Shown here piece after piece: positions 10,953 through 40,699 of a stretch of DNA of 64,000 nucleotides; positions within the stretch are counted from its first letter, which is position 1, and each line of letters opens with the position of its first letter. Source of the DNA: Scleroderma bovista (lineage: Eukaryota > Basidiomycota > Agaricomycetes > Boletales > Sclerodermataceae); contig JAYMGJ010000139.1 in NCBI GenBank assembly GCA_037178675.1, forward strand, positions 147,511-211,510, read 5' to 3'. The notes below the pieces were generated by a model. That model ran no database searches and was not told where the DNA came from. It was given only the letters and a program-made list of their open reading frames with translations. Both the position numbers and the translations under genes were made by a program.

Positions 10953-13900
10953 TCAAACATTGGCGCCCCATAGCCGAGACGCCATCGACCGGCTGGGATA
11001 ATGTCCAGGTCTAAGATATTGCTGTCGTGCAGAGGTACTTTCACTTGAAAACGTGTCGAACTGACTCGCAGACGCGCCGGATCCTGGCATTGTCGTTAAT
11101 GAAGGTCCGCTTGCAAAAGCGATTGCAGGGTCAGCTCGTCCGGGGGCACGTCCGATAGTGGTCGGATAAGGTGAAAGACCAGAGTGTCCCGGTACTCCCA
11201 AAGGACCTCCTGGGTTGATTGATGATGAAATCCCCCCCGGGTTCACTGTGCCAGCAGCAGTACCACCGGTGGATACCCCGGGCAGGCCAGACGCACCATG
11301 TGACGGGATCGCAGCTGACTGGTGCATGACCTGCGGTGAACTAGACACGCTCAGCGTCAAGGACCGCTGATGACTTGGACCAGGACCTCGGAGTGTCTGG
11401 AATGGTTGTGGAAACGCTGGAGAGTGCGAAATGGGGCGCATAAAGGGGTCATCATAAAGAGCAGGTTGGTACACAGGGGGTGACGAGATTGGTTCAGCTG
11501 GACCATCCTTCATCCCAAGAGGGCGCTGAGGAGTCCGGTCGTTAGCACTACCGTTCCGAAGCGTCCCAAGTGAAGGTGGCCACGCAGGTGACAGACCTGC
11601 AGCTGATGACGACATAAGCAGAGAATGGGAACTATGTGTCTGGTTTTGCCCAATGACACCGACGCTGTTCTCGGTACCCAGAGTCATCACATTCACGGCT
11701 GGTTGCGACGGTGTATGGCAGTGGTGCTGGGCAGGACCTTGATCCAACGAAGTGGACCAAATCGAAACCGGCACATTTTGCGAGCCCCCAAACAGTAGAG
11801 GCGGCGGCGGCGATGGAATTACACCGGAAGATAGTCGGGGAGATACCACCCCAAACCCAAACCCAGACCCACCTCCACTCCTTAACCCGTGCTTGGATGT
11901 ACCAATTCCCATAACATTGTTCAGTAGGTCCTGTGCCGTCGTCCCAGCTGAAGCAGGCAGTGATGTGGGTTGCGATAACGAGGTCGTCCTATTGGGTGGT
12001 GAGAGCATGAGCCGTGACATGAGATTTGGGCTCTCCATCGACTTAGGGGGAGAGGACATTGTGGGTGCAACCGTTTGCGCGCCCATGTTCGCTGCGATAG
12101 TTGTAGTGGGCAACGCCACTTTTGGCGGAGAACCTATAGGCCTATTCAAGTCCAGAGTGACGTCAGTACACCGCGTGATATATGGACAAAAGAGAAATCA
12201 ATGACCTTGGATTCCATACAATCTCATCTTCGTCTTCATCATCCTCCATCTCTTCATTCTCAGACAAGTCGTGATTATCTAGCACTTGTCGGAATGCATC
12301 CCCAACGGGATCATCATCCGTACGACCTGTATCAGTCATCTCATCGTCATCCAGTTCTTGGTCACTTGTCACCATGGGATGAGGATGACTGTGTTGATGA
12401 TGTTCCTGGTGATGGCGATGCATCCACTCCCGTCCGCGTTCCTCTGGAAGATTGGGCGGAAGATTTGAATTCGTCGCTGACATGGCAGTGGGCTGCCCAT
12501 TCTCCGCCTTCGCCATACCTTTCGCACCGTCAAACTTAAAAGTAGAACCCTTCACATAGACAGGGAAACCCTACAGACAAAAACAATGTGTGCCATCAGT
12601 AGGTGATCATTTGCAAATCACAGGCGAATCAGAGATCGCCAAGCTTGGAGAATGGTGATCCTTACCTCAATCTCGGCCAACCCTTTCGCATCCATTAGTA
12701 GATCCCATATTCGCATGAGCTGCTCCTCGTTAGGGTGGACTTTTTCGGCTATCGCCACAGCTGCGTGGATGTCTCCGTCGCCATTCTGTCTCATTGAATT
12801 GTTTCGGTCTCCCAAGTTTTCCCCGGTTGAACTTGCTGTGGTGGGTTGCTCTCCGTCCGCCACGTCACCTCCGAGCATCCTACCTCTCAGCGGTAGAAAT
12901 CCCCTCAGATCTACGTCTTCATCCAGTGGAGCCTCGAGCCTTGGAAGCCTATCAAGCGGAAACACCACTCCCAGCGCAGTATAGAACTCGGCAAAGCGGT
13001 TATAAAAAAGGGACAAGCCACCGCGCAACGCGCTTCCCTCTTCACCATGTTCGGATGACGTCGAAGCCACCTTGATGATATACCCAACATTTCCAACCAA
13101 CCATTTGCTCGCTACCCTCAAGGCAGGCAACATCCTTCTGAATGCCGCTGTGATCTTCGGCGCCAAGTCATTGTCGGACGCATCTGGGGGGGGAGGCGTT
13201 GCGAGTTGCGCAGTGCCTACCTCGAGGAGGATGCGATGGATCGTTAGCAGGTGGGTGAGGATACGAAATTCAACTGTGAGTGGTGTATCTGAGTTGCTAT
13301 TGTTGGGGCCGTTGGTCGTATCTTGTTCTACCTTGGTTCGACCTGCAGATTCGGAACGCGAATGTGGACGCCCAGCACGCTCACGTGACTTGTGGAGATG
13401 AGAAGACGCCCTTGGGTTATCCCGGATCATCCGGTGTTTCCATACCGCACTGTGAGTGAGTACGACCACGCGAGTGACCATGTCGATCGGAAGTACGCGA
13501 TCTGAGATGAAAGCCCTAAAGGATTGTGCAATGTCTGAGGAAATGACTTCGGGGCTGACATTGAGCCTGTATAGCAAAGGATAAGAACATGTTGTTGTGA
13601 TCAGGTGCACATGGCTTACCTCTCAGCTTCGACCCGTAACAACGCATGCAAAAGCACGATATTGTCTTTCATCCTATCCACCTTCACCTTTGCTGGCACC
13701 TCCTCCCCTTCCTCCTCCCCTCTCGCACCTTCCCTCGCCCACCTCGCAGCCCCCTCACCTATAGCCCTGCCAAACACTTTCCTTAGGTTCTCCACCGCAG
13801 CCTCATAAGGACCCTTCACACAAAGCGCCCTCAGGTACCAATACAATGCGTCGAACACATCACCACCGTAGAATGATAAAATGGCAAGCTGATGCGCCGC

Positions 13901-15037
13901 ATTCCCGTCGCTTGGAACCAGTGCGCGGGCATGTTCGTAGAAAGATATCGAGCGATGGTACGTACGGGCCCTTGCGACTTGCTCTAATCCAGGACGCCGA
14001 TGACGCCCACGACGAGCGGGCATCACGCCAGGACCGTCTTCTTGACCTGCTCTTGGGCGGCCCCCAGATTCATTATACAGCTCTCGGTACCGTGCAATAT
14101 CGCCGAGACACACGAACGCCTTGGCGAGAATAGCCAGCCTAGCCGCATGCTGTTCTCCCTTGCCGAGACCTGGAGGTAAAGGCGGTGCAACGACATCTTC
14201 CGGTGGGAAGCCGAAATGATCGCGCTGGGGTCGTGAAGTATTGTTTGGGCTCCCATCATTCGTATGGACCGCCGTGTTGGGCGTGGTAGGGTCGGCAGAC
14301 CCACCGTCACCTACATCTCCAAGTTCCGGTATCCTGACGGACATCGTAGTGGGGACCACCCCAAGCGCGAGAAGAGCGGGCTGAGCTTCGGAAATCCCAA
14401 ACTGGCGATAGTAGCGTGCGACGAAAGCGATCCAAAACTTTTCCTCCTCGGCTAGGAACTGGCGGAAACGCTGCATGAGCTTGCGATACTCGACGGGCCC
14501 GTGTTGGCGCTGATCATGCTGTTGCTGTTGTTGGTTTTGTTGTTGGTTAGAGTGAGGGTTTTGACGAGAAGAACGAGTACGTTGTTGCTGTTGTTGCTGC
14601 AGGGCACGATCCAAAGTGGCAATGTCTTGTTTGTAACGAGAGATGAATGGATAGGAGGTCTGCATCCATAGATGTGTCTCTGCATCCTTCGATTCTTTCG
14701 CATATGGCTCAAGGAGGAGGAGGCGGAGGTAGAGGCGACGCAGGCTTGATCAAAAATACATTGTCAAAGAATGTGAAGTGTGGTTTTTGCGTCAGCGACA
14801 CGAAATAGGGATGCTAGATGGACTCACTTCTTCCGATTGAACTCGACCTCCTTGTCCCAAGGGTTTCGTGTCTTGAGGAGTTCTTTCAGACCCTGGTGTA
14901 TCCCTTTGGCCTCTCTACATGACATTCGATGTGATTCGACATGCAAGTAAGACCAGCGTAAATAGTTGAGAGTGGGTCAGTCATCCACAAATAAAGAAAC
15001 CCCACCTGGCGATTTCTTCAGGTGTTTCGCTGGACAT
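10953..15037 (-). CDS. EST1: EST1/SMG7-family protein (telomerase / nonsense-mediated decay)
   Basis: Exons on the minus strand are 15037-15006, 14914-14828, 14744-13620, 13566-12666, 12570-12206 and 12141-10953, with consistent phases and 1232 residues. The N-terminus carries the family signature: NPWDKEVEF near residue 27, LRRLYLRLLLLEPYAKES near 40, then WMQTSYPFISRYKQDIATLD. This is the 14-3-3-like/TPR domain that in SMG5/6/7 binds phosphorylated UPF1. A Gln-rich insert follows. The Est1 DNA/RNA-binding helical domain spans exons 3-4 (for example YWYLRALCVKGPYEA near 350 and DLRGFLPL near 630). An acidic tract lies near residue 800, and the C-terminal third is Ser/Pro/Gly-rich and disordered. 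There is no PIN nuclease domain, so it resembles Est1/SMG7 rather than SMG6. The choice between a telomere and an RNA-decay role cannot be made from sequence. Confidence 0.9.
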
Positions 15038-19282: not shown

Positions 19283-20392
19283 TTACGCGGCTTCCCAGGG
19301 TTTTTTCCTAACTGGTGCATTTGACTGACTGGGGTCGCATTCCTGCCCCGGATGTAAGTTATGGGGTGCATAATGATGCAATATGCACATGTAGGAGCCC
19401 CGGGTATCACATATCGCCATAAGATCATTCGTTCGATCCACGTTGCCATCATCATATCGACCCATCGACGTTAGTTTCAAAAGCAACCGCGATACGTTGT
19501 GTAGATTTCATTATAGTGCACCAATCAATCCCCCGATAAGTATACACTCAGCCCAAACTACAGACTAATCACGTACATTTACTTGGTCTGGAATGTGCTT
19601 GTTGTGGGGAATGTTCTCTGTGTTTCCGGATTCGATGAGAGCTTTAAGTTCGACAAAGGTGAGAGTGCCTTGTCTTGTTTGTGGTGAAATTCCCGGGGAC
19701 TCAATTGGCGATCCCAATGCGCAGGAAGGGGAACTTGGCGATAGGTTGTCTCCACGTGTGGGGGGCGTGGAGGGTCCAGGCATAGAGTTGGGGGGGAGAG
19801 AAATTTCGGTAGTAAGCGATCTGACGTCTTCTAGCGAGACGTTGGATTCTGTTTGTCTGCCAGATGAGGAGATTAGTAGTACATCGTAACGTCATTGAAG
19901 TAATGGCATCAGTATTAATTTATTGGTTTAACCGAAGTGTCGCAAACATGGAAGAAATCAAGCTCAAGGAGGTAAAATGAAATGAACTTCGGCTTTGTGC
20001 ATGAAAAGGGGAAATACGGATACAAGTAAGAAATGACATTGACGCAAGGGAGTGCGATGTCATAGGAAGCTGATAAGTTACACACCGATTGAAGTAAAAC
20101 AACTGAGTTCTGAGCTGAAGATCTGATCTTTCCTGTTCCGAAATTGAATGTGCAGAGGCATGTTCAAGGATTCCGATTAGGCCTTGCTGTAATATAGCCG
20201 TTTCCATCGTCATTTATTGTCATCGTTTCCCATCCGGGTTGGTGCGGTCATTCGAACAACAGTATCAAGAAGAGTGCTCTGTCATTAGAGCTGATCCAAT
20301 ACAGCAATCACACGGACCTGGAAGACCTCGTCCGAGGAGAAAGGATACTCGAAGAATTTGCGAAGTGCTTCATCCTTTTCTGTATTCGACAT
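19283..20392 (-). CDS. PEX39: PEX39-type peroxin with KPWE motif
   Basis: The four exons on the minus strand are 20392-20318, 20186-20086, 19856-19577 and 19342-19283, joined by introns of 131, 229 and 234 nt, long for this window. All phases agree and the product is 171 residues. Conserved pieces fall in order: YPFSSDEVFQQGL (residues 16-28, across the first junction), RTQLFYFNR (50-58), a variable Ser/Pro linker, TFVELKALIESG, IPHNKHIPD, and APVRKKPWEAA at the C-terminus with KPWE at 166-169. This is the architecture of the KPWE family that includes human C6orf226 and yeast Yjr012c, recently named PEX39, which binds PEX7 and helps import PTS2 cargo into peroxisomes. No membrane segment is present, fitting a cytosolic co-receptor. 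It is transcribed divergently from the ArfGAP gene. The family assignment is strong; the exact exon 3 donor (19577 or six bases earlier) is not settled. Confidence 0.85.
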
Positions 20393-25172: not shown

Positions 25173-27319
25173 ATGCACTCCCCGATTGCACTCAGTCCTC
25201 CATCGCCCTCCCAGTCGCTCTTCACCAAGAAGAGGGCCTCTCTCTCGCAACTGCCGCCGTTGGCCAGCGCTGCTTCCTATCTCTCTGCAGTCCACGAAGC
25301 AGATGTCCGTGCTCGCAGCCATGAAATCACCCCCACCTCAACACCTGCTCTCTCCGTATCGTCGTCCATATCCGCCTCCTCAGAGGACACTGTCCTCAAC
25401 GAATCGGACGACAATTCGGGACTAATTTATCCTCTCACACCCCCCACGTCGGAGCAGGTCTTCAACACCGTTCATTCAGAGTTTGGTCACTGCGCCAACC
25501 AGAGCTATCGCTGTGTCTCCCAACACAACTCAGAAAAACCAGTCGGAGAACACGAGGTCGAAGAGCCGCCGTACTACATCCTCTTCACCACTTATTTCAG
25601 TTATCTCATTCTCATCATATTCGGGCACCTGCGCGACTTCTTTGGCAAACGCTTCGCAAAGTCCTATTTCACTCATTTGATGCCACATGACGTGGGTTGG
25701 TTCCTCTTTTGTCGTGTGGTGGGGCCTGACATCTCTGAATAGGGTTACGCACCTTTGAACTCGGATTTTGACTCGTTTTATACCCGTCGTCTCAAGCGCC
25801 GCATGGATAACTGTTTCTCCCAACCAGTCACAGGCGTTGCAGGTCGCACCATCCTTACTTATGACCGATACTCCAAAGATTACAACTACACCCAAATATA
25901 CCCCGGTACCAAGACCCGTGCTCTCAACATTTCTTCCTACAATTATCTTGGTTTTGCCCAAGCACGTGGTGGCTGTGCCGATGCTGTTGAAGAGTCTATC
26001 AAACGATATGGCGTATCCACTTATGGCACGCGTCTAGAGGGTGGCTCGTGCGATTTTCACCAAGTCGCCGAGGCCCTTGTAGCTCGTTTTGTTGGCATGG
26101 AGGACGCGTTAATTAGCTCAATGGGTTTTGCGACAAACTCGGCCTTCATCCCTGCTTTGGTGGGCAAGGGTTGTCTCGTTATATCCGACGAATTCAACCA
26201 CGCATCCATCCGTGTCGGTGTAAGGCAGAGCGGTGCACATGTCCGCATGTTCAAACACAACGATATGAAGCGCTTGGAGGGCTTGCTTCGCGAGGTTATC
26301 AGCCAGGGTCAGCCCAGGACCCATCGCCCATGGAAGAAGATCCTTGTCATCGTCGAGGGTTTGTACAGTATGGAAGGTACGATGGTCGATTTACCCAGAA
26401 TTATAGAACTCAAGAAGAAGTATAAGGTGCGCTAATCTTCGTACCCGTTGTTCGTTGCTGAATTGCAATTGCATCTATGCAGTTCTATCTTTTCATTGAC
26501 GAAGCACACTCAATCGGTGCACTTGGCCCACACGGTCGCGGAGTGACAGATTATTTCAATATTTCACCTCGTTCCGTCGACATCCTCATGGGCACCTTTA
26601 CAAAATCCTTCGGAGCTTCGGGTGGATACATCGCTGGGCGCAAGTCGCTTATTGATAGTCTCCGTTTACGTGGACATGCGGGGCCATATGCAGAAGCAAT
26701 GACACCCCCCGTCCTCACCCAGGTCGTATCAAGCATGGCCAGTATCATGGGCGTCACTCCTCCTCCCCTTACCTCACCCTTGAAAACCCCTCTTGCATGC
26801 GCAACCCCAACGGCAAACGGAGTTTCATTGGCCCGCACGGTCGATAACTATGTGCATCCTGGCATGGCACCTTCTTCTGCTCTCCCCACATGGCTCTCCC
26901 TCCCTCCCTCGCTGTTAGACGGATCCGAAGCACGCGAGCGCATCCGCCGATTGGCATTTAATTCTCGTTACCTTCACGCTGGCTTGAACAAACTCGGTTT
27001 CATCACCTGCGGCCACCCCTTCTCTCCAATTGTGCCACTCATGATCTTTAACCCTGGTAAACTGGGGGCATTTTCAATCATGATGCGGGAGCGGTCGACG
27101 CCAATCGTCGTGGTTGTCGTTGGATACCCAGCAACGCCACTCGTATCTAGCAGAGTCAGGTTCTGCGTGAGTGCGGCGCATACCAAGGATGACATTGACG
27201 TGATACTGCGGGCATGTGACGAGATAGGCAATGTACTGGATTTGAAGCACGGTCATGGGGAGAGGTGGTCAATTGAGGAGATTATGAAGCGAAGCGTGGA
27301 GCTTGTCAACTCATTCTAA
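25173..27319 (+). CDS. LCB2: Serine palmitoyltransferase catalytic subunit LCB2
   Basis: The exons 25173-25691, 25743-26426 and 26483-27319 are in phase and give 679 residues. The protein condenses L-serine with palmitoyl-CoA at the ER, the first step of sphingolipid synthesis, as a PLP enzyme paired with LCB1. A disordered N-terminal region (about 1-120) precedes a transmembrane helix near residues 135-150 (YFSYLILIIFGHL). The aminotransferase fold follows with SSYNYLGFA, STYGTRLEGG, DEFNHAS, VEGLYSMEG, IDEAHSIGALG and the PLP-binding lysine in GTFTKSFGASGGY (about K442). A Pro/Ser-rich insertion of about 60 residues after SSMASIMG is longer than in yeast Lcb2. The ending RVRFCVSAAHT is conserved. 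The start at 25173 was chosen because the ATG at 25157 is out of frame. Confidence 0.95.
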
Positions 27320-35392: not shown

Positions 35393-35761
35393 TGAGCGCA
35401 CTGTGTGCAGCAATGCACCAGGCAGCGCTCCAGCTCCCTGAGCGTCGCTTTAACTAGCTTGACGCTGTGGACCACAGTGAGCTCCTAGCTGAGCCCCTGC
35501 ACAGCCACAAGGTGAAGTCGGTCAACGACTTGCGCCAGACAGTGAGCTCCTAGTTGAGCACCTGTACTGCCACAGGCGAAGTTCGTCAATGACTTGCGCC
35601 AACCATGGCGAACATCGTCGACGACTTGCGCTGGCATAACCTAGTCATGAGTTAGCTGTTGACAGAAGTGCTTTCACTAGCACTCAGGTGTTTCTTCTTT
35701 TCTTGCTTGTCCGTTGTCGCATTCATTTGCTGACTCCGTTGACACCTAACAGAATATCACC

Positions 35762-38700
35762 ATGTCCAGCACTCTCGACAAGATGGTTCCTGTGTTCACT
35801 GGCTCCAACTGGCAACAGTGGCACACCTCTATGCAGGCCTACCTTCGGGCCCAAAGCCAATGGTACGTTTATTCGACGATGCAACCCGCTGCCGGTCACA
35901 ATGACCGAAAGGAGTGGGACGACAACACCGGGAGAGCGCTTGGTAACATCACCTTGTGCCTCACCCCCTCTATCCAGGTCGCTGTCTCGAATCTCGACAA
36001 CGTTAAGGATGTCTGGGACCACCTCAAGAAGAACTTCGGCGCCCCCAGTATTGGCTCTGCCTACGCTGAGCTCAGCAAGCTCCTGGCAACTACCATCCCC
36101 GCTGGCTCTCACCCCACTCCGGCTATCACCAAAGTGCTTAGCCACTTTGCCTATCTCAAAGACGCCGGCTTCGAATTCCCTGCCCCCGTGCAGGCCATGA
36201 TCATTCTGTGCAAGCTCCCTCCTACTATGGAGGTTGTAGCTCAAATACTCAGCCAGACGTCGCCGGACGAGATTAAAAATCTGAAGCCTGATGGAATTGT
36301 CAAGGCCGCTACGCTCTCTTTTGAGCAGAAAGGCGCCTCTTCGCGCGCTGGTGGTAAGGGCCCCCAGGCCAACAAGCTTAGCGCTGTGAAGTGCAAGCCG
36401 GCTGACCCCAAGTTCGCCCAGCAGCAGCAGCAGCCCCAGAGGCAGCAGCAGCAGCAAGGCAGGTCCAACGGTGGTGCGAGCGGAAACGCTCCTGCCCAAG
36501 GACAGGGAGGCCGCACTCGACGTGGCGGCAAGAAGGCTCGCACTCGCCGCGAGAATGCCCAACAGGCCGCCTTCACTACATACGTCCACTACGATGGACC
36601 AGAGCCCACCGTTGACCCTCGCGCCTTGGCTCACACTCCCGGTGCTGCCCACTACGGCCCCCCTGCATTCACAAATACTATTAAGGCCTTCGACTTGGCA
36701 CACCACTTGGGGGTAGAGCCCTCCTGCCAAACCATCCACACCCTCGACCAAGTTGTGTCAATGGCAAGTGCGAACCTGGACCAGCCCGAGGCAGGTCCCT
36801 CCTCGCTGAAGCGCCCTCGTCTTGAGGAGCGCATCACGATGTATGAGGAGGATGCCATCTCCCTTGGGGATGATGAACCATTCGCCCACGAGCCTTTCGC
36901 CGACGACGAGTTTGACGAGATCGATGCGATGGTCCTCGACCGCTACAATGCGATGTCGATGGCAATGGGCGCGGAGGCCAGCCTTTTCAGGCAAGTACCT
37001 TCTGCACATGTGCTGACCGACACTGACATGCTCCCTTTACATGTGCGCTTTACGCTGGCACTGTATATAGCGAGTAGTAACTACAATTTGTCGTGTCGCG
37101 TCTCAAGTAAAGCATATATTTGTTCGTGTTCTCATGAAACGAGTGATGCACGCTGTGCTAAGTGTAAGGGAAAAATGGTTGACGATAGCGAACTATCTGG
37201 TGCTTTCTGGCTACTAGACTCTGGCGCATCACGCCACTTTACCGGTGACATAGGCGATTTCGCCTCCTATAATGCGCTAAAGCGAGCGCACTACGCCAAA
37301 ACGGCTAATGGTGTAGCACTAATTGCTGGCATTGGCACGGTATTACTCCGGTGCCTAGACCACAACTCAGGGGATGAGAAAGTGATTACACTCACCCAAG
37401 TGCTCCATATGCCAGGCGCTACTGCACACCTTATTTCTATGGGCGAAATGCTCCAGCGTAACTATAAAGTCACTGGCGATAAGCGAGGCATTAGCCTCAT
37501 TCATAAAGCTGAACGCCTATGGTTTGGGCCAGACCCAGAAGACGATCGCAACATCATTTTCGGGATTAGATCTATCCCAATAATTAGATCTAACTATATT
37601 GCTTCCGTGAGCAAAGTCGATTACGACATTATGCACCGGAGATTCGGGCACCCCTCGAAGGAAGTACTCCGATGCACGCAAAAACATACGCAGCACTTCC
37701 CGGAGATCCACTTTCCAACTGAGGACTGTGTTTGCCCTGGATGTGCTCTTGGCAAGATGCCCAATCGAGCTTTCCCAGAGAACGAAAGACGTGCTTCCAA
37801 GCCCTTTGAGCTGGTGCACTCTGACCTGAAATCCTTCCCGGTTACGTCGTACCGGAAGTATAAGTATGTTATCACCTTCTACGACAACTATACCTCTCAT
37901 GCCTGGACTACGCCTCTTCGCTCCAAAGCTGCAGTGATTATGGCTGCCAAAGATTTCCTCAAAATGGTGCGCGTCCAACATGATATGCACGTCGTTGGAT
38001 GGATGTCCGATGCTGGTGGAGAATATAAATCTGATCTGTTTGATCGAGCACTCCTTGAGAAAGGAATTAAAATATATCAAAGTGCTCCAAGAACCCCCAT
38101 GCAGAATGGCCGCGCCGAGCGTTTAGGGCGCACTCTCATGGATAAAGCTGAGTCTATGCGGCATCAAGCCTGCATTCCTGACTCCTGGTGGGAATTTGCG
38201 TTTGCTCACGCAACCCACATTTACAACCATACTCCGGTAGCTTGCCTGCGATGGCGCACCCCCCATGAAATGCTTAAGGGGGAGCTGCCTAACATCGACC
38301 ACCTCCGTGTATTTGGCTGTGGAGCCTTTGTCTACCTCCCAGCCTCGGCTCGAGCAAATAAGATGGCTCCCAAGTCGGAGCTTATGACTTATATCGGTGT
38401 TGCCCCTGGCAATGAGTGCAATTTCTTGTTTATGCGCTCCACCAATGCAGTATTTACCACTGCTCACGCCGTTTTTGACGAGCGTCTTTTCCCTCGCTGC
38501 CCTAAGAACAGGCGTGAACCTCTCGAGAACCCTTTCGGAAGGGCAAATCCGAAACCGGCCACTGATTGACCAGGGAATCCCCCTGATGATACCGACAGTG
38601 ATGATGATGTGGAACACAACCATGGCTACCCACATCCCCAAGCGCAGGATGACGATCCAAAGCGTGAGGAACCTAAGGCTCCTGAGGAAGAGCCTAGTCA

Positions 38701-40699
38701 AATAAATCCTCCCCATATGCAATCTCCAGTGCCTCCACCGGCACCGAGAACGCCTTCACCGGCAAGAAATCCGCCACCTCTGGCACCGCAGCACCCTGGC
38801 CGAGCTGAATGCCGCCAGAATGTGCCGCAACCCCCTGCAGTTAATATACCTGCCCGCCCCCAACGTGAACATAGAGCGCCATTGCACCCCGGTAACGTGT
38901 ATGGTGAGCGGCGACATCCCGTCGAGCAACTCTGGGATATCGAAAGTGCCTCTCGATGGCAAGAAACAGTGGGTGAGGCCCCTAGGCCCCCACAACTGGA
39001 CACACCAGACCATGTTCCTGGTGGTTTCCCCGACACCTCTGCAACGCCCAGTGAGGAAGATGTGCAAAAGATGTGTGAGGAAGGGGGAGCAAACCTAGTC
39101 TGTTATCTGATGGGCAAAGCCCTCAAAACCCGCGACCCTCAATACGAGAGTGTCCGCAACTGGTCCTATAAGGACATTGCTCGCTTACCACAAGCTGAGC
39201 AGAAACTCTGGTGACTTGCTTGCCAAGAAGAGCTCGACGTGCTGTGAAAGCGCAAGGTCTTTGAGCTAGTTGACCGTCCCCGAGACCGGAAGGTCATAAA
39301 GAATCAATGGGTCTTCGATGTGAAGTCGGATGGCCGCAAGAAAGCCCGCTTAGTAGCAAAAGGCTTCTCCCAGGTCGAGGGATTAGATTTCGACCAGGTC
39401 TTCTCACCAGTCGTGCGCTTTGAAACAGGGCGCCTCATGCTTGCGCTTGCCGCACTTGAAAACTGGTATATCACTGGACTCGATGTTCGGAGTGCCTACT
39501 TGTATGGCAAGCTCGACGAAGAGATCTACATGGAACAACCCAAAGGGTTTGCAGTTCCTGGGCAAGAGCGCAAAGTGCTCCGCCTCTGGCATGCCCTCTA
39601 TGGCCTCAAACAGGCCGGCCTAGCTTGGTGGCGCACACTCAATGAGTCTCTCAAAGAGCTCGGGTTTGAGCGCCTTAAATCTGAAGCAGGCATCTTCTTC
39701 TACAAGAAGAAAGGCACCAACATCGTCATTGGTATTATCTACGTTGACAACGCTCTGTTCTGCGGCCCTAACAAGGCTGTTGTTGATGCCATCAAAGCGC
39801 AGTTCATGCGCAAATGGGAGTGCAGAGACCTTGGAGAACCTAAGGAGTTCCTCTGTATGCGAATCACTCACAAGGGTCGCGCTATCCACTTGGACCAATG
39901 TGCGTACCTCCAAAAGGTCGTCAAACGCTGCAGCATGCTCAATGCAAAGTCCGCAAGCACCCCACTGCCGGCTGGCTACTATGCTGCCAAGAATACAGAG
40001 CCTGTTGATGCGGAACTCCGCTCCCATTTCCAGACGGTTATTGGGTCCCTTCTGTACCTCATGTTAGGCACTAGGCCCGACATTGCCTTTGCAGTCACGC
40101 ATCTCTCACGCCATGCCGCGAACCCATCCCAGGACCACCTGTCCAAAGCGCTTTATATCTGTCGCTACTTGATTGGTACACCTAACTACTCCCTAGTGTA
40201 CAATGGTGGATCTGGTGCTGGCCTGATTGCATGCACGGACTCAGATTGGGGATCAGACCCTACCTCTCACCTCTCGCAAACAGGTTTTTACCTGAAGCTT
40301 GCAGATGGCTTGATCAGCTGGACTTCTCGTGCACAGAAGACTATTGCATACTCGTCCACTGAGGCCGAATACATGGCTTTGAGCGATTGCGCTCGCCAAG
40401 TTACCTGGATTCAGAGTTTACTCGGTGAGCTCGGCTATAAGCTGAAAGCTATCCCAATTTGTGGTGATAATCAGGGGTCCATATTCATGGCATCCAACCC
40501 TGTAATGGAGCCTCGCTCCAAGCACATCGACATCCACTACCACAGAATCCGCGAGTCAGTCGCGAAAGGTAACGTGGAACTATTCTTCATTGATGGTGCT
40601 AAGAATCCTGCCGATCTGCTCACCAAGAACTTACCACGCGAGAAATTCGCGAAGTTCAGAGCTCAACTAGGCTTACAGTTTCCCTCTGGCAGCATCTAG
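35762..40699 (+). pseudogene. Copia gag-pol polyprotein with three in-frame TGA codons
   Basis: One frame runs from the ATG at 35762 to TAG at 40697, about 1645 codons, interrupted only by TGA at 38567, 39212 and 39245. Domains in order are: gag (about residues 1-200); a Gln-rich and Arg-rich basic tract without a CCHC knuckle (about 215-270); protease with LLDSGASRHFTG (about 483); HHCC zinc binding (FGHPS...CPGCALGK); integrase with HSDLKSF, MSDAGGEY and NGRAERLGR; reverse transcriptase with KNQWVFDVK, LDVRSAYLYG and YVDNALF (39740-39760); and RNase H with STEAEYMALSD and KHIDIHYHRI. The canonical YVDD is changed to YVDN. The copy cannot make a full active polyprotein. Confidence 0.92.

What the first reader, a model, noticed from the sequence alone, without database searches (positions are those of the whole stretch)
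19283..20392. Hidden four-exon PEX39-type peroxin gene
The gene is invisible as a long frame because introns of 131, 229 and 234 nt split a 171-residue protein. Splicing restores the family blocks YPFSSDEVFQQGL, RTQLFYFNR, ELKALIESG and a C-terminal RKKPWE. The KPWE family was only recently tied to PEX7-dependent PTS2 import, so basidiomycete members are likely under-annotated.
Basis: partly seen in the sequence, partly recalled or inferred. Interest (0 to 1): 0.75.

Follow-up and report, generated by a model that had tools for sequence, protein, structure and literature searches.

The report
Mushroom gene for peroxin PEX39
This is an ordinary, intact copy of a recently characterised helper gene for importing proteins into peroxisomes; close relatives are already predicted in other mushrooms but still labelled 'hypothetical protein'.

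Summary
On the minus strand, four exons (20392-20318, 20186-20086, 19856-19577, 19342-19283) join through GT-AG introns of 131, 229 and 234 nt into a 171-residue protein. It hits Pfam KPWE_dom at 60.4 bits against a cut-off of 27 and is 74% identical over its full length to a Scleroderma citrinum protein. A profile search found 170 relatives; the 120 listed are, where named, mushroom proteins called hypothetical or uncharacterized. KPWE is kept in 116 of 123 retrieved proteins. The same genome encodes PEX7 and a PEX13 starting MSSPPKPWE. This is the only PEX39 orthologue detected in the assembly, with the extra N-terminal region usual in fungi. Function is inferred; there was no RNA evidence. 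One thiolase ends in SKL and another has no canonical signal, nor do the latter's 120 listed homologues. What PTS2 import carries here is open. Otherwise this is a new member of a known family.

The parts
20318..20392 (-). Exon 1 of the PEX39 orthologue, start codon ATG at 20392; MSNTEKDEALRKFFEYPFSSDEVFQ, start of the N-terminal helical region
   Evidence: aligned to relatives
20187..20317 (-). Intron 1, 131 nt, GTCCGT...TTACAG, phase 0
   Evidence: the contig ORFs P0012 and P0013 look like unspliced readings through this donor (sequences, judged by eye)
20086..20186 (-). Exon 2: QGLIGILEHASAHSISEQERSDLQLRTQLFYFNR, N-terminal helical region
   Evidence: helices in the model of the relative P0001
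19857..20085 (-). Intron 2, 229 nt, GTGTGT...GGCAG with a CTAAT branch-like element upstream of the acceptor (by eye), phase 2
19577..19856 (-). Exon 3: end of the N-terminal region, low-complexity linker, amphipathic-helix block LTFVELKALIESG and IPHNKHIPDQVN
   Evidence: KPWE_dom positions 3-31 hit this exon alone in the genome search
19343..19576 (-). Intron 3, 234 nt, GTACGT...GGGCAG, phase 0
   Evidence: the rival donor at 19582 scores worse
19283..19342 (-). Exon 4 with stop codon: ECDPSQSNAPVRKKPWEAA*, carrying the KPWE motif in a 60-nt last exon

Best explanation
The locus encodes the PEX39 orthologue of a Boletales mushroom of the Scleroderma group: a small, probably cytosolic peroxin. 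Its C-terminal KPWE motif docks on the bottom face of the PEX7 propeller. Its amphipathic helix (LTFVELKALIESG, with F126 at the place of human L21) covers the PTS2 signal on the other face and so clamps cargo until the co-receptor takes over and PEX7 passes to the KPWE motif of PEX13. Shown here: gene structure, family membership, conservation of motif and helix, and presence of PEX7 and a KPWE-bearing PEX13. Inferred from published yeast, human and Xenopus work: binding, clamping and handover. The N-terminal helical region, shared by the agaricomycete relatives, has no known role.
For: Spliced model and junctions; PF17733 60.4 bits; full-length relatives; KPWE in 116 of 123 and the helix block in 121 of 123 retrieved proteins; one KPWE_dom match in the 51.8 Mb assembly; one PEX13 match, its frame starting MSSPPKPWE; PEX7 exons whose WSE glutamate aligns without gaps to yeast WNE, which I take, by counting on a recalled human PEX7, to be the E77 that PMC12339391 reports as needed for KPWE binding (passages); recalled human PEX39 matches the same profile positions 3-47. 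Mechanism: PMC12339391 (passages, sections 62 and 9) and PMC12173945 (passages).
Against: No transcript, localisation or binding data. No canonical PTS2 was found at the starts of the thiolase or glycerol-3-phosphate dehydrogenase genes, so no natural cargo in this genome is identified. The PEX5-type co-receptor was not searched for.
Confidence: 0.93

Rival explanations
1. A pseudogene or unexpressed relic of PEX39: the exons survive but no working protein is made.
For: No transcript evidence was available; the introns (131-234 nt) look long for a mushroom gene (general knowledge, not measured here).
Against: All four frames are open, all junctions GT-AG, the KPWE motif and helix are intact, and 74% identity to S. 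citrinum spans the whole protein; PEX7 and PEX13-KPWE keep the contact residues.
Confidence: 0.04
2. A KPWE-domain protein that no longer serves PEX7/PTS2 import and is kept for another role carried by its N-terminal helical region.
For: No canonical PTS2 on the thiolases tested or on 120 of 120 listed homologues of one of them; the N-terminal region is a confidently predicted helical domain of unknown function (on P0001).
Against: KPWE is kept in 116 of 123 proteins, and the PEX7 glutamate and the PEX13 KPWE are kept too, which is unlikely if the contact were dead. Several Polyporales thiolases begin with a stretch like QRIQNLTG that may be a degenerate PTS2 (by eye).
Confidence: 0.05
3. The third intron uses the upstream GTAAAT donor, giving a 169-residue protein.
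For: It is also GT-AG and keeps the frame.
Against: KPWE_dom drops to 46.9 bits and the conserved V/L/I-N pair is lost.
Confidence: 0.03

Closest known systems
PEX39 (human C6orf226, yeast Yjr012c)
   Same: Amphipathic helix, linker and (R/K)PWE motif on the same PF17733 positions as the recalled human sequence; the genome also encodes PEX7 and a KPWE-bearing PEX13, on other contigs.
   Different: Longer than the recalled human protein, with an N-terminal helical region and a low-complexity linker. [quoted passage not shown] that it is this region is my inference. Yeast Yjr012c was not compared.
Scleroderma citrinum SCLCIDRAFT_1213179 (P0001)
   Same: 74% identity over 100% of the query; same block order.
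   Different: Shorter linker, longer C-terminal tail; named only hypothetical protein.
PEX13 N-terminal KPWE motif
   Same: Carries the same tetrapeptide, which PMC12339391 reports as PEX7-binding (passages).
   Different: PEX13 carries Peroxin-13_N; the only Pfam match on the window protein is KPWE_dom.
PEX14-KPWE fusions outside opisthokonts
   Same: Same kind of domain (PMC12339391 passages; Pfam name 'PEX14-like KPWE domain').
   Different: No Pex14_N on the window protein, and no (R/K)PWE in the loci of up to about 3 kb around the three Pex14_N matches.

Membership tests
PEX39 / PF17733 KPWE domain | PF17733 above the curated cut-off (I recall it as the former DUF5572 named in the PEX39 paper) | tested here: met
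   60.4 bits vs 27, residues 123-169
PEX39 / PF17733 KPWE domain | (R/K)PWE motif at the end of the domain | tested here: met
   KPWE starts at residue 166; present in 116 of 123 retrieved relatives
PEX39 / PF17733 KPWE domain | Amphipathic helix with a hydrophobic residue at the human L21 / yeast Y9 place | tested here: met
   F126 in register with recalled human L21; F in 113 and L in 8 of 123, no match to the pattern in 2; helix at residues 114-123 in the model of P0001
PEX39 / PF17733 KPWE domain | Stand-alone protein, not fused to PEX14 (opisthokont form) | tested here: met
   Only KPWE_dom found on the protein; Pex14_N matches lie on contigs C388, C48 and C814
PEX39 / PF17733 KPWE domain | Co-occurrence with PEX7 and a KPWE motif in PEX13 | tested here: met
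   PEX7 on C296; PEX13 on C340, MSSPPKPWE
PEX39 / PF17733 KPWE domain | A PTS2 cargo in the same genome | tested here: inconclusive
   No PTS2-type match at the starts of the thiolases on C40, C409 and C48 nor at the start of glycerol-3-phosphate dehydrogenase; the start of the fourth thiolase match, C621, was only covered by the stricter scan; other cargo not searched
PEX39 / PF17733 KPWE domain | Binds PEX7, cytosolic, needed for PTS2 import | not testable with these tools
   Needs binding and import assays
PEX39 / PF17733 KPWE domain | Similarity to yeast Yjr012c | not tested
   No sequence of it was at hand

The most novel reading that the evidence does not exclude
Mushroom-forming fungi keep the whole PEX7-PEX39-PEX13(KPWE) hand-over although their thiolase, the classic PTS2 cargo, carries no canonical PTS2. 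The pathway would then serve other, unidentified cargo or a degenerate PTS2, or the N-terminal helical region of PEX39 would add a function.
Probability: 0.35. Interest if true: 0.45.

Novelty: new member of a known kind. Interest (0 to 1): 0.17.

Why it matters
It extends a peroxin characterised only in 2025 to an unnamed gene in a mushroom genome, with the motif, helix and partner residues that the PEX7 contact is thought to need. It also shows a practical annotation trap: the KPWE motif lies in a 60-nt last exon behind a 234-nt intron, and at least one public gene model (P0002) loses it. The mismatch between intact PTS2 machinery and PTS2-less thiolases is a small, testable question about which cargo keeps the pathway alive in mushrooms.

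Tried and rejected

PTS2 scans. A first scan used a misordered pattern; its one hit (L010, thiolase on C621) was dropped because it does not fit the true consensus. A strict scan of all frames of 20 aa or more in the four thiolase loci found none. A looser pattern in the three gene-strand frames around the starts on C409, C48 and C40 found none. A very loose pattern upstream of C409 found one match, 428 bases before the start codon, taken as chance. Around glycerol-3-phosphate dehydrogenase the pattern (Q also allowed first) gave three matches on the gene's strand in each of the two near-identical loci, none at the gene's start MSSCPTPKSRILVLGAGNFG, so they were discarded. A [RK]PWE scan of five loci gave one RPWE in an antisense frame of L013, a weaker WD40-type hit of the PEX7 search, taken as chance. 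Two weaker hits of the PEX7 search, on C300 and C6, were taken as other WD40 proteins.

Paper searches: no listed paper was seen to name an agaricomycete PEX39. I saw listings, and passages or sections only of PMC12339391, PMC12173945, PMC9133605 and PMC3764329; the library holds open-licence papers only.

Full report
Observation. The minus strand at 20392-19283 contains four open stretches separated by three GT-AG introns of 131, 229 and 234 nt; joined, they give a 171-residue protein ending in RKKPWEAA. The only ambiguity is the third donor: a GT six bases upstream also keeps the frame, but it lowers the KPWE_dom score from 60.4 to 46.9 bits and removes a residue pair that all ten aligned relatives keep as V/L/I-N.

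Identity. The protein hits PF17733 (KPWE_dom) with E = 1.7e-16. A single-sequence search found 13 proteins; the best, from Scleroderma citrinum, is 74% identical over the full length. A profile of 11 sequences found 170 proteins, of which 120 were listed and 50 not seen; the organisms named in the listed rows are all agaricomycetes (my classification), and the truncated names read hypothetical or uncharacterized. Among all 123 proteins retrieved in the two searches, 116 carry KPWE, always with K. The seven without are P0002, P0011, P0012, P0013, P0100, P0122 and P0123. P0011-P0013 look like unspliced single-exon readings (sequences, by eye). P0002, a second S. citrinum model, ends in ...ECILIGGIG, and ECILIGG can be read from the window's intron 3 at 19549-19529 (direct reading), so it looks like a model that ran into the intron and lost the motif. 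P0100 and P0123 have unrelated tails that may have the same cause (inference), and P0122 reads KKPRE.

Anatomy. In 31 hand-picked relatives out of the 123, invariant or nearly invariant positions cluster in three places: the F..D....Q.GL and FYFN blocks, the LTFxELKxLIExG helix with IPNN..IP, and KPWE. The AlphaFold model of the S. citrinum protein P0001 on that alignment has mean pLDDT 81 and pTM 0.47; four helices lie within residues 2-78, residues 81-105 are below pLDDT 50, and a helix spans 114-123 before the KPWE tail. The first domain probably corresponds to the additional region 'X' that Chen et al. [quoted passage not shown] the figure was not seen). Its fold comparison was uninformative. 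The helix and KPWE match human PEX39 (recalled sequence) in register, with F126 opposite human L21, the residue reported to stabilise PTS2 binding (PMC12339391, passages, section).

Partners. The own genome (51.8 Mb, 850 contigs) has one KPWE_dom match. It has one Peroxin-13_N match, whose frame starts MSSPPKPWERTTP. It has a PEX7 in several exons on contig C296. The yeast sequence FDLAWNESHENQ aligns without gaps to YDVAWSEIHENQ, so the glutamate that I take to be human E77 (counted on a recalled human PEX7, no call) is kept. Three Pex14_N matches lie on other contigs, with no (R/K)PWE in the loci of up to about 3 kb around them. This is the co-occurrence pattern of PEX39 and PEX13-KPWE that Chen et al. 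describe (passages).

PTS2 cargo. The thiolase search gave matches at four places. C48 ends in SSKL, a PTS1, and C409 starts MSPSSAKARIL and ends ASEH. C40 looks like an acetyl-CoA acetyltransferase and C621 like a thiolase of the SCP2 kind (by eye). No PTS2-type match was found around the starts of C40, C409 and C48 in the three gene-strand frames, nor by a stricter scan of all four loci. The pattern [RK][LVI]x5[HQ][LA] is absent from the first 45 residues of 120 of 120 listed homologues of C409, and none of the 120 has an SKL-like end (5469 homologues passed the threshold, so 5349 were not examined). Against a simple loss, some of these models are truncated at the N-terminus, and several Polyporales rows begin with a stretch such as QRIQNLTG that could be a degenerate PTS2 (by eye). 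By contrast, in U. maydis the N-terminal fragment of thiolase Um01090 fits the PTS2 consensus and carries a reporter into peroxisomes in a Pex7- and Pex5b-dependent way (PMC9133605, passages). So in this genome the machinery is present while the classic cargo signal is not seen; upstream exons, non-AUG starts, a degenerate signal or other cargo could explain it.

Mechanism. By homology, PEX39 binds PEX7 through KPWE, clamps the PTS2 with its helix, loses that grip when the co-receptor binds, and is exchanged for PEX13's KPWE (PMC12339391, passages and section). Skowyra and Rapoport instead stress extraction of PEX7 from the PEX13 phase back to the cytosol by PEX39 (PMC12173945, passages). Both need the features that are intact here. 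None of it was tested in this fungus.

Verdict. A correct observation and a correct identification, with low surprise: a new, intact member of a known family in a mushroom of the Scleroderma group (placement inferred from best hits).

Noticed in passing
G000 contigs C48 (105186-105966, -) and C409 (20138-20867, +); loci L020, L019: Two 3-ketoacyl-CoA-type thiolases: one ends in SKL (PTS1), the other shows no canonical PTS1 or PTS2, and 120 of 120 listed homologues of the latter show none either.
   Followed up: partly
P0002 (second S. citrinum model) against window 19549-19529: A public gene model appears to run into intron 3 and so loses the KPWE exon.
   Followed up: partly
L023 and L024 (contigs C6 and C157): Two 3258-base stretches carrying a glycerol-3-phosphate dehydrogenase are 99.9% identical, suggesting retained haplotypes or a recent duplication in the assembly.
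   Followed up: no
window 35750-40696 (+): Long frames that look like a copia-type retroelement (judged by eye from the first residues shown).
   Followed up: no
window 12621-14749 (-): EST1 and EST1_DNA_bind domains in two neighbouring frames, an Est1-type protein.
   Followed up: no
window 25743-27316 (+): Class I/II aminotransferase domain in two frames; a serine palmitoyltransferase subunit is my guess.
   Followed up: no
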